A stretch of 64,000 nt of DNA from an uncultured Pelagibacteraceae bacterium (GTDB lineage: Bacteria > Pseudomonadota > Alphaproteobacteria > Pelagibacterales > Pelagibacteraceae), in assembly GCA_902580505.1 (NCBI GenBank), contig CACHLB010000004.1, forward strand, positions 1 through 64,000, given 5' to 3'. A model generated the notes under the pieces. That model was not told the origin of the DNA, did not search any database, and saw only the letters and a program-made list of their open reading frames with translations. Position numbers and translations under genes: made by a program. Below, piece by piece: positions 52,921-56,247 of this stretch (positions are counted from its first letter, which is position 1; each line of letters opens with the position of its first letter).

Positions 52921-53379
52921 ATGAAAATTATATTTTCGATATTAATTTTGCTTTTTTCATCATCAATTAGTTATTCCAAAAATACGGATATCATCCATGA
53001 TTTTAAAATTACATTTGATTGTAAATTAGAAAAAATAATGATCAAAAATAAAGATTTTAATTATCAAACTTTTACTGCTGATAATATTGAAGTTGATAAA
53101 AACAAGGTTTTAAAAGTTGTAGCAGCACAACCAAGTGTATTAACAATTAATGGTTTATCAGAATTTATAGATACTTATTCAGATATAAGTAAAGATGATG
53201 TTAGAATTGCTAAAAACGATACCATTTTATTTAAAAATATAGATAAAGAAAAAAAATACTCAGAATCAGTATTTTTAAATAGATCAACTGGTGAATTAAT
53301 TCACGAAGTTACAAAAAATATGAATACTAAAGATAATGAAAAATATATTTCTTTCTTTGGTTGCACTAAAGAATTGTAA
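52921..53379 (+). CDS. secreted hypothetical protein
   Basis: Signal peptide; 152 aa; ATG immediately after upstream stop. Confidence 0.6.
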   Translation: MKIIFSILILLFSSSISYSKNTDIIHDFKITFDCKLEKIMIKNKDFNYQTFTADNIEVDKNKVLKVVAAQPSVLTINGLSEFIDTYSDISKDDVRIAKNDTILFKNIDKEKKYSESVFLNRSTGELIHEVTKNMNTKDNEKYISFFGCTKEL

Positions 53380-53484
53380 GATCTAATTTTTGATTACCCA
53401 ATCTCTCGTTACCTTTTTCAGTAACAAGATATGTTTCGCCTAAACTCATTGCTAGTTGATTTTCAGATTCCACCAATATAATGT
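53366..53484 (-). pseudogene. Orphan 3'-end fragment homologous to the M24 peptidase gene at 55096-56247
   Basis: Reverse strand reads IILVESENQLAMSLGETYLVTEKGNERLGNQKLDLTIL*, versus MILMDSEEQLAMNLGETYLVTETGNERLGKQKLDLVVL* in the intact gene; gapless, offset 1730 nt. Confidence 0.9.
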
Positions 53485-53490
53485 CGAGAA

Positions 53491-53712
53491 ATGGTGAAAC
53501 TAATAAAATATTTAAGATGTTTAAATTGTATTAAGAAGAAGAAGAATAGCAAGTTGCATAAAGTAAAGAATTTTTTATTATGTAAAGAATGTGGAGAAGT
53601 ATATCCTATTTATAAAAAAATACCAATCATGTTGTCTGAGAAAGGTGATTTCTTTCATTTAAAGAAAGCTTTGTTGCCAGCAAAATATAGAGTGAAAAAA
53701 TATGGAAGTTAA
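53491..53712 (+). CDS. Trm112-like zinc-ribbon protein
   Basis: LRCLNC ... LLCKECGEVYPIYKKIPIML. Confidence 0.7.
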   Translation: MVKLIKYLRCLNCIKKKKNSKLHKVKNFLLCKECGEVYPIYKKIPIMLSEKGDFFHLKKALLPAKYRVKKYGS

Positions 53713-54355
53713 TTTTTTAGATCAATTGCCTGGAAAAAAAAAACCAATTAAAGAAAGATTTTCTGTTTCAAATGAAGATAGAATTAAATCTTGGCGTTTA
53801 GATAAATATTATTTTGATGGTTCAAGAAAACAGGGATATGGAGGTTATCACTATGATGGAAGATGGAAAAAAGTAGCTCAATCTATGACTAAACATTATT
53901 CACTCAATCAAAATTCTAAGATTTTAGATATTGGATGTGCAAAAGGATATTTGTTAAAAGAATTTAAAGATATATTAAAAAAATCTACTATTATTGGGAT
54001 TGATATATCTGAGTACGCGGTTGATAACTCTCATAAAAAAGTAAGAAATAATATAGCTGTTGCTAATTCTGTAGAATTACCTTTTGAAAATAATTACTTT
54101 GATTTAACTATTTCAATCAATACTTTGCACAATATACTTGATTTAAAGTCACTAGAAAAATCTTTTAGAGAAATAAAAAGAGTAAGCAAAAAAAATATGT
54201 TTATTAGCATTGGTACTTATGAAAATGAAAAAGAAAAAAAAAAATTAGACAATTGGGCTGTAGTTGCAACTACCTATATGCATAAAAAAAATTGGTTAAA
54301 GTTTTTTAAGAAAGTAAAATATAATGGAGATTACAGCTGGTTTAAGCCTTTTTAA
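53702..54355 (+). CDS. class I SAM-dependent methyltransferase
   Basis: ILDIGCAKGYLLKEF motif I; LPFENNYFDLTISINTLHNI. Confidence 0.9.
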   Translation: MEVNFLDQLPGKKKPIKERFSVSNEDRIKSWRLDKYYFDGSRKQGYGGYHYDGRWKKVAQSMTKHYSLNQNSKILDIGCAKGYLLKEFKDILKKSTIIGIDISEYAVDNSHKKVRNNIAVANSVELPFENNYFDLTISINTLHNILDLKSLEKSFREIKRVSKKNMFISIGTYENEKEKKKLDNWAVVATTYMHKKNWLKFFKKVKYNGDYSWFKPF

Positions 54356-54357
54356 AC

Positions 54358-55023
54358 ATGAAAAAAAAAATAATTATTCTTGGTGCAACGGGTGGCTGTC
54401 TCGATATTTTAAATTTAGTGAATGATATTAATAAAAATAGTAAATCAAAAAAGTATATAATTGCTGGTTTTTTAGATGATAAAATAAAAAAAGTAAAAAT
54501 AAATGGAATAAAGTTACTAGGTAAATTTAAAGATGCTAAAAAATATAAAAATAATTATTATTTTGTAACTGCAATAGGTAGCTCAAAAAATTTCAGAAAT
54601 AATCAAAATGTGATAGAAAAGTTAGATATACACAAGAAAAGATTCATTTCACTAATTCACCCTAAAGCCATAATTTCAGATTTTTCTGAAATAGGTTATG
54701 GCTGTTTAATTTTTCAAAACGTCACAATATCTACCAACGTTAAAATTAATGATTTTGTTCAAATTTTACCCAATACAGTTATCAATCATGACACCATTAT
54801 TGAAAATTACTGTAAGATTAATACTAATTGCAATATTAGTAGTGCTGTTATTCTGAAAAAATTGTGTTATTTAGGCGCCGGTGTTATGATTAAAGAAAAA
54901 ATTGTAATTAATGAAAAAAATTTAATTGGGATGGGTAGCCTTGTTTTAAAATCTATAAATGCTAAGAAATCAACAATATTTGGCAACCCTGCCAAAATAA
55001 AAAAAAATTTTTCCAGCGCATAA
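54358..55023 (+). CDS. NeuD/PglD-like sugar O-/N-acetyltransferase
   Basis: IIILGATGGCLDILNLV N-term; left-handed beta-helix hexapeptide C-term (ISDFSEIGYGCLIFQNVTISTNVKI...). Confidence 0.82.
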   Translation: MKKKIIILGATGGCLDILNLVNDINKNSKSKKYIIAGFLDDKIKKVKINGIKLLGKFKDAKKYKNNYYFVTAIGSSKNFRNNQNVIEKLDIHKKRFISLIHPKAIISDFSEIGYGCLIFQNVTISTNVKINDFVQILPNTVINHDTIIENYCKINTNCNISSAVILKKLCYLGAGVMIKEKIVINEKNLIGMGSLVLKSINAKKSTIFGNPAKIKKNFSSA

Positions 55024-55095
55024 ATCAAGCCATAAAGGTTATAACTACTGTATATAGCCAATTTGGCAAACTATGTATCAAACCGAAAACTAGGA

Positions 55096-56247
55096 CTACA
55101 AAACGACTAAATCTAACTTCTGTTTCCCCAATCTCTCATTACCAGTTTCAGTCACCAAATATGTCTCTCCTAGATTCATTGCTAATTGCTCCTCACTGTC
55201 CATCAATATCATGTGCATGAAGAAGATGTTGCCTGGTTCTATTACGTAAGGATTTCCTGTGTATAACATTGGCCAATCCATCCAATTAGGAGAAAAAGTT
55301 GCACCCAAGGAATACCCACATGCATTCATTCTTGAACTTTTAAATCCATGATCATCAAAGGTTTTTGCATGAACATCGAAAACTTCTCCAATTTTATTTC
55401 CAGGCTTTAATTTATTTTCACAATTTTTAATAGCTTCAACGCATGCTTCATGCATTTTATGATGATTTGGATCTGCTTTTCCAATGGGTATTGTTCTAAA
55501 CATCGCTGAATGATAGTGCCTATAAGTACCTGCCCATTCAATGGTTAACTGATCTTGATAATTAAGTATTTGTTTCTCTGCCTGATATCGACAGAGTAGG
55601 GCATTCTTTCCAGACCCTATAATAAATTCATTAGCAGGATAATCTCCACCTCCTTCAAATATAACTCTATTCATTTCAGCTAAAATTTTAGATTCACTTA
55701 CTCCTGCTTTTGCATGTTTCCATACTTCATCTAAAGCCTTGTCAGCTAAAATTGCTGCTTTTTTTACATAACTAATTTCTTCATTAGATTTAATTACTCT
55801 TAATTTTGTTATTAATTCTGACTTATCCTCAATTGAGCAATAGTTTTGTAAAACCGTATTAAGTCTTAATGCATTTCTCCCTGTAAGACCGTAGGCTTCA
55901 TATTCAACACCAATTTTTTTTCCTTTTAAGTTTAATTCATTTAAAATTATTTTGAGATCATCAGCAGGATTAGCTCCATCTTTATCAACCCAAATTCTTA
56001 TATCACTAATGTTTGAAGTATTTTGAGCTTGCCTTAAATCAGGGGCTCTAGTTAATAATATTACATTACCTTTTTGATCTAAAACTAATGCTTGAAAAAA
56101 AACATATCCAAAAGTGTCATAACCAGTGAGCCAATACATAGACTCTTGTCTAAACATAATAAGAGCATCTACACCCTCATTTTTCATAGAGTTTAAGGTC
56201 TTTTCTTTTCTATTTGAGAATTCTTCTTTACTAAAATGAAGACCCAT
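55096..56247 (-). CDS. M24 family metallopeptidase (Xaa-Pro peptidase/creatinase fold)
   Basis: ALIMFRQESMYWLTGYDTFGYVFFQ; ANEFIIGSGKNALLCRYQAEKQIL; EPGNIFFMHMILMDSEEQLAMNLGETYLVTE. Confidence 0.92.
   Translation of the reverse strand: MGLHFSKEEFSNRKEKTLNSMKNEGVDALIMFRQESMYWLTGYDTFGYVFFQALVLDQKGNVILLTRAPDLRQAQNTSNISDIRIWVDKDGANPADDLKIILNELNLKGKKIGVEYEAYGLTGRNALRLNTVLQNYCSIEDKSELITKLRVIKSNEEISYVKKAAILADKALDEVWKHAKAGVSESKILAEMNRVIFEGGGDYPANEFIIGSGKNALLCRYQAEKQILNYQDQLTIEWAGTYRHYHSAMFRTIPIGKADPNHHKMHEACVEAIKNCENKLKPGNKIGEVFDVHAKTFDDHGFKSSRMNACGYSLGATFSPNWMDWPMLYTGNPYVIEPGNIFFMHMILMDSEEQLAMNLGETYLVTETGNERLGKQKLDLVVL

What the first reader, a model, noticed from the sequence alone, without database searches (positions are those of the whole stretch)
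53366..55214. Cassette inserted at the 3' end of an M24 peptidase gene, leaving a duplicated, diverged gene end
The reverse strand at 53366-53484 encodes an orphan C-terminus (IILVESENQLAMSLGETYLVTEKGNERLGNQKLDLTIL*) that aligns without gaps to the end of the intact M24 gene (55096-55214), offset exactly 1730 nt. I counted about 81/104 identical bases for 53381-53484 vs 55111-55214. The frame and stop position are kept and homology stops abruptly after ATGT. The orphan end overlaps the 3' end of the convergent gene 52921-53379, so it may be the original locus end, with the current gene's 3' end brought in by the cassette. Between the copies lie only a Trm112-like protein, a methyltransferase and a NeuD-like acetyltransferase, the kind of genes expected in surface-polysaccharide islands. 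This resembles an island that regenerates the 3' end of its target, but with no integrase and a protein-coding target.
Basis: partly seen in the sequence, partly recalled or inferred. Interest (0 to 1): 0.85.

Follow-up and report, generated by a model that had tools for sequence, protein, structure and literature searches.

The report
Integrase-less cassette replacing a gene end
In the very abundant ocean bacterium SAR11, small DNA cassettes carrying changing sets of genes insert at one exact spot near the end of a peptidase gene and bring their own copy of the gene's last 62 codons, so the gene still works, although no cassette examined carries the enzyme expected to move it.

Summary
The window is from a SAR11 (Pelagibacteraceae) genome. 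The orphan at 53366-53484 is the host's original M24 gene end: 91-92% identical to relatives in which M24 and its convergent neighbour abut or nearly so, but 74% to the intact M24 end in its own genome. That intact end was brought in: the M24 gene matches relatives at about 93-95% up to nucleotide ~967 and 74-81% after it. Relatives carry empty alleles and many different cargoes at this junction, in three flanking contexts. In three less decayed cassettes, and in about 75 of the 120 best short metagenomic proteins, the orphan begins at one place, TGGATTGGCC (codon 323). Gene ends brought by cassettes form their own lineage, while the upstream part of the same genes follows the host. This is repeated site-specific integration of 1-5 kb elements whose attachment site includes a functional 3' gene end. 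No recombinase was found in the cassettes, no viral record searched carries the site, and the host's only conserved tyrosine recombinase has an unrelated putative site, so the enzyme is unknown and probably acts in trans. The window's copy is partly decayed: about 67 nt of the orphan and the cassette's right end are missing.

The parts
55281..56247 (-). host-derived 5' part of the M24 peptidase gene (nucleotides 1-967)
   Evidence: 93-95% identical to same-clade relatives; places with its host clade in the upstream tree
55267..55280 (-). insertion core TGGATTGGCCAATG, holding the palindrome ATTGGCCAAT; start of homology in all intact orphans
   Evidence: among all fetched loci the 14-mer occurs only in M24 genes and orphans
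55096..55280 (-). cassette-borne, functional 3' end of the M24 gene
   Evidence: identity to relatives falls to 74-81%; groups with ends of other filled loci (with L082 100/98) apart from host ends
55024..55095 (.). non-coding left end of the cassette between the M24 and acyltransferase stops; the 11-bp repeats of intact cassettes are not recognisable here
   Evidence: position by homology with L031, L044, L094; repeat test negative for the window
54358..55023 (+). cargo: NeuD/PglD-like hexapeptide acyltransferase
   Evidence: Pfam PglD_N and Hexapep
53702..54355 (+). cargo: class I methyltransferase
   Evidence: Pfam Methyltransf_11
53491..53712 (+). cargo: 73-aa zinc-ribbon, Trm112-like protein
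   Evidence: Cys pairs in sequence; no Pfam hit
53366..53484 (-). orphan: truncated original host 3' end of the M24 gene
   Evidence: 91-92% identical to ends of empty or near-empty relatives, 74% to the intact end 1.7 kb away; groups with empty alleles in the tree
52921..53379 (+). convergent flanking gene (152 aa, no family); overlaps the orphan end as it overlaps M24 in empty alleles

Best explanation
The window holds a partly decayed member of a family of small (about 1-5 kb) integrative cassettes without an integrase. They insert by site-specific recombination at TGGATTGGCC inside the M24 gene, about 186 nt before its end. Their attachment site carries its own working copy of those last 62 codons, so integration swaps the gene's 3' end and pushes the host's end downstream as an orphan. 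Shown here: the fixed boundary, insertion in several host clades and flanking contexts, varied cargo, empty sites, the separate lineage of cassette-borne ends, and absence of a recognisable integrase from the cassettes. Inferred: the reaction is conservative site-specific recombination by a tyrosine-type recombinase supplied in trans, the short direct repeats at 10-11 bp spacing at both cassette ends are arm-type binding sites, and cassettes stack with the newest next to M24.
For: Exact common start of orphans at TGGATTGGCC in L031, L044 and L094. Of the 120 best short-protein relatives, 76 were classed as junctions at (M/L)DWPM with non-M24 N-termini (one of them, P0117, looks like M24 by eye). 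Empty and variously filled alleles. Mosaic gene: the window has 45 mismatches in nucleotides 1-900 and 43 in the last 184 against one relative. End tree: a 96/95 branch parts the cassette ends and most filled-locus ends from host ends and orphans; upstream of the core the same rows scatter among host clades (8 changes for 8 rows). Orphans match the empties of their own context best. Across all loci a cassette-type end goes with a filled locus (20 of 40 filled, 2 of 52 empty, p 2e-7; p 2e-4 without the loci that defined the group). Direct repeats at 11-bp spacing follow the stop in most of eight cassettes and score as high in 1% of other loci; L031 and L044 share a nearly identical 90-nt right end with different cargo.
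Against: No recombinase, circular form or donor element has been seen. The window's own copy lacks the precise right junction and clear left-end repeats. Within the 52921/51943 context alone, the link between replaced end and filled locus is not significant (p 0.07). Only three complete right junctions were available as DNA. The bootstrap of the end tree had not fully settled, and 186 nt is short.
Confidence: 0.83

Rival explanations
1. One ancient insertion fixed the boundary, and all later diversity came from ordinary homologous recombination that swapped cargo between conserved flanks and spread the locus between strains.
For: L031 and L044 share a near-identical right end with different cargo; homologous exchange of a SAR11 island is published (PMC2217521).
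Against: Orphans match the empty alleles of their own host clade in different contexts, and two of them keep an open frame over all 61 codons, so insertions look recent and separate; many distinct right-end families share one junction.
Confidence: 0.1
2. Illegitimate recombination helped by one-sided homology: incoming DNA recombined in the M24 end and joined at random on the other side.
For: Would also give a mosaic gene and an orphan end.
Against: Predicts scattered orphan start points; the observed start is the same nucleotide in L031, L044 and L094 and the same codon in about 75 metagenomic proteins.
Confidence: 0.03
3. The same site-specific integration, but catalysed by SAR11's own conserved ~317-aa tyrosine recombinase (integron-like: fixed enzyme, mobile cassettes).
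For: It is the only Phage_integrase member found in the near-complete genomes G012, G103, G135 and G174, is present in cassette-bearing genomes such as G000, G527 and G686, and lies next to variable glycosyltransferase and methyltransferase genes.
Against: A 29-bp dif-like palindrome beside its gene, varying with enzyme type, looks like its own site; the M24 core and cassette ends resemble it no more than shuffled sequence does.
Confidence: 0.1
4. The 53366 fragment is the remnant of a tandem duplication or ancient full-length M24 paralog.
For: Partial copy in the same orientation.
Against: No paralog lies at this place in relatives; empty alleles end as the orphan does, with a similar overlap with gene 52921.
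Confidence: 0.01

Closest known systems
Genomic islands and prophages that integrate in the 3' end of a protein-coding gene and restore it (SGI1 at trmE, PMC8409611; phage 21 and e14 at icd, from own knowledge)
   Same: fixed core inside the gene, element supplies the missing 3' end, original end displaced as a fragment; repeated short motifs near the ends resemble arm-type sites
   Different: those elements carry their own integrase and are larger; these cassettes are about 1-5 kb and none was found to carry one
Integrons
   Same: one chromosomal site collecting different small cassettes, newest apparently next to the fixed side, cassettes without recombinase
   Different: no IntI nearby, no attC-type cassette ends identified, site is inside a coding gene whose end is replaced each time
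Tycheposons (Prochlorococcus; also reported in Methylophilaceae, PMC10872708)
   Same: integrative cargo elements of streamlined ocean bacteria
   Different: those sit at tRNA genes and carry a tyrosine recombinase
Elements using host Xer recombinases (IMEX)
   Same: integrase-less integration by a host enzyme is the model
   Different: the M24 core is not similar to the dif-like site beside SAR11's only conserved tyrosine recombinase

Membership tests
3'-end-targeting site-specific integrative element | fixed insertion site in independent insertions | tested here: met
   L031, L044, L094 and about 75 metagenomic proteins
3'-end-targeting site-specific integrative element | element carries its own replacement of the target gene end | tested here: met
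   end tree against upstream tree
3'-end-targeting site-specific integrative element | empty sites in relatives equal to the displaced end | tested here: met
3'-end-targeting site-specific integrative element | encodes an integrase | tested here: not met
   none in cargo by Pfam for the proteins scanned, nor by comparison with SAR11 integrases across the fetched M24 loci
3'-end-targeting site-specific integrative element | excised circular form | not testable with these tools
   no reads available
Integron | adjacent intI-type integrase | tested here: not met
   no integrase near M24; the SAR11 recombinase scores 27.7 against the integron model's cut-off of 265
Integron | attC sites bounding cassettes | tested here: inconclusive
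   ends show direct repeats at 10-11 bp spacing instead; no structural attC search was made
Tycheposon | tRNA target and own tyrosine recombinase | tested here: not met
   target is the M24 gene; no recombinase found
IMEX (host Xer users) | site resembles the host dif | tested here: not met
   best match to the putative dif-like site no better than shuffled sequence

The most novel reading that the evidence does not exclude
SAR11 has a cassette-capture system in which integrase-less gene cassettes, each carrying a replacement end of a protein-coding gene as their attachment site, are repeatedly inserted at that gene by a recombinase supplied in trans from a source not yet identified.
Probability: 0.5. 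Interest if true: 0.88.

Novelty: new variant of a known kind. Interest (0 to 1): 0.8.

Why it matters
SAR11 is among the most abundant cells on Earth and is known for few mobile elements (own knowledge); how its variable genes enter the genome is an open question (PMC2217521 found no integron signature and left the mechanism open). A fixed site with empty, filled and stacked alleles gives a direct, testable route of gene gain in wild populations, and the missing recombinase is a defined target.

Tried and rejected
Looked for the M24 end or the core in viral contigs and phage records: nothing; a right-end pattern in viral contigs: nothing. A narrow right-end-plus-core pattern in 397 genomes: nothing; right ends vary too much for it. 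Integrase near M24: none; integrases other than the conserved one occur in a few genomes and, where both places were compared, lie on other contigs than M24. Recombinases in genomes of loci with long inserts: only the conserved type. Conserved SAR11 recombinase as the enzyme: site not similar. A second partial 3'-end copy in the same genome (contig 3) is antisense to repeated lipoyl-type domains. PADLOC scan of cassette cargo: only weak matches for the window's methyltransferase. The window's own left end shows no 11-bp repeat.

Full report
The observation. The window lies in contig 4 of a SAR11 genome (1.09 Mb, 36 contigs, 87% complete). Scanning the ends of 777 open frames in 755 kb of that genome, only M24 has such a copy; one other raw hit proved spurious.

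Relatives. 80 loci from public SAR11 single-cell and other genomes and 24 genome copies, some of them the same strains, were compared. In the closest clade (M24 about 95% identical) the M24 gene is convergent with gene 52921 or, where that is absent, gene 51943. The gap is at most 34 nt in empty alleles and 0.2-5.5 kb in others. In a second group the neighbour is an ABC permease gene (33 of 39 empty), in a third a dihydroxyacetone-kinase-like gene (5 of 10 empty). The end of the empty allele (..AGATCTTACAATTCTTTAGTGCAA..) is the window's orphan end almost letter for letter.

Which end is original. The window's orphan is 91-92% identical to the ends of L037 (empty) and L034, and 74% to the intact end of its own genome. 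The window's intact M24 gene is at 93-95% to relatives up to about nucleotide 967, then 74-81%; against L051 there are 45 mismatches in 900 nt and 43 in the last 184. Diversity in this clade about doubles or more after the same point, but not in the second clade, where most loci are empty. So the current gene end came with the cassette.

The boundary. Three less decayed cassettes (L031, L044, L094; two flanking contexts) have orphans that start at exactly TGGATTGGCC, about 186 nt before the end of the gene, after cassette sequence. A search of 5.8 billion proteins with the L094 orphan returned 1058 short relatives; of the best 120, 76 were classed as starting M24 homology at (M/L)DWPM, which that sequence encodes, after varied non-M24 N-termini that fall into a few families; one of the 76 looks like plain M24 by eye. 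Only 13 were classed as plain M24 fragments. The query itself begins there, so the shared start alone would prove little; the foreign sequence directly upstream is what counts.

A separate lineage of gene ends. In a tree of the last 186 nt, the ends of eight loci with cassette-type left ends and ten filled loci including the window are parted from the remaining host ends and the orphans by a 96/95 branch, with three empty alleles (L058, L059, L040) on the cassette side; the window's end is sister to that of L082, a genome of another clade (100/98). The orphans of the window and L094 sit with empty alleles of their own host clade on supported branches; that of L031 sits there without support. 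In the tree of the upstream 966 nt the same eight loci are scattered, needing eight changes. The ten filled loci in that tree were chosen partly for their divergent ends; the tree of all loci avoids this choice: cassette-type ends in 20 of 40 filled and 2 of 52 empty loci (p 2e-7; p 2e-4 leaving out the loci that define the group). Within the 52921/51943 context alone it is 11 of 23 against 2 of 14 (p 0.07). Shared ancestry among loci makes all these p values optimistic.

Cassette anatomy. Left end: directly after the M24 stop most of the eight cassettes have two copies of a 9-11 bp motif at 11-bp spacing (for example GTGCAAGTC twice in L092, GCTCTAGTT twice in L031); 1% of other loci reach the score of the best five. 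The motif differs between cassettes but repeats within each. Right end: L031 and L044 share about 90 nt before the core, with AGACT-type units at 10-bp spacing and a TATTAGGGACT also present in L094. These look like arm-type binding sites of a tyrosine recombinase; that is inference. Cargo is one to a few genes: methyltransferases, acyltransferases, glycosyltransferase with DUF6311, pilin-like proteins, transporter-like and secreted proteins, and unknowns (several named from sequence only).

Stacking. L031's orphan is followed by an M16 protease gene that in L042 directly follows M24; in both L042 and L155 a decayed orphan lies next to the same methyltransferase-like gene. New cassettes therefore seem to enter next to M24 and push older ones outward.

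The window's copy. It is older than L031, L044 and L094: its orphan keeps 119 of about 186 nt, its right end is gone (the Trm112-like start codon lies 6 nt past the homology), and its left end has no clear repeats. Its membership rests on the crossover at the core, the lineage of its gene end and the orphan's match to empty alleles.

Mechanism. No recombinase was found in the cassettes examined. The site is absent from IMG/VR and INPHARED at the sensitivities used. The only tyrosine recombinase conserved in SAR11 is a ~317-aa enzyme far below the XerC and XerD cut-offs; a 29-bp palindrome beside it looks like its own site and is unlike the M24 core. The likeliest reading is a recombinase supplied in trans by an element not yet sampled. 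Homology-helped illegitimate joining is excluded by the fixed boundary; one ancient event with later cargo swapping is made unlikely by recent, host-specific orphans in separate contexts.

Literature. The SAR11 comparison of 2007 reported hypervariable regions, found no attC sites, and left the cause open (PMC2217521). Islands that restore 3' ends of protein genes are known (SGI1 and relatives, PMC8409611) but carry an integrase (own knowledge). No paper in the held library joins Pelagibacter, Xaa-Pro and genomic island; most subscription papers are not in the library, so prior description elsewhere cannot be excluded.

Noticed in passing
L172:1030-1983 (own genome, contig 32) and L242-L251: SAR11's only conserved tyrosine recombinase has a 29-bp dif-like palindrome (ACTAAYGATAA-TTAATNG-TTATCRATAGT) 4-8 bp before its start codon; a divergent enzyme type (63% identical) at the same locus has a correspondingly different palindrome. 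This suggests a single-recombinase Xer/dif system, although PMC2731167 reports none in Pelagibacter.
   Followed up: partly
L252:4150-4178, L253:13660-13688, L254:1781-1809: Three viral contigs carry that same 29-bp site with no sign of that recombinase in the stretch held; L253 is distantly similar to pelagiphage HTVC106P. Possible phages that integrate using the host enzyme.
   Followed up: partly
L242-L251, directly 3' of the recombinase gene: The genes next to the recombinase's 3' end (mostly convergent glycosyltransferase- and methyltransferase-like genes) differ from genome to genome, while the other side is conserved.
   Followed up: no
L042, L155, L031: Older orphan M24 ends lie beyond newer inserts, so the locus keeps a layered record of successive insertions.
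   Followed up: partly
L048, L050, L053, L054 between the homologues of genes 52921 and 51943: A further ~0.5 kb insert occurs between these two genes in some strains, and gene 52921 itself is absent from others, so the variable zone extends beyond the M24 junction.
   Followed up: no
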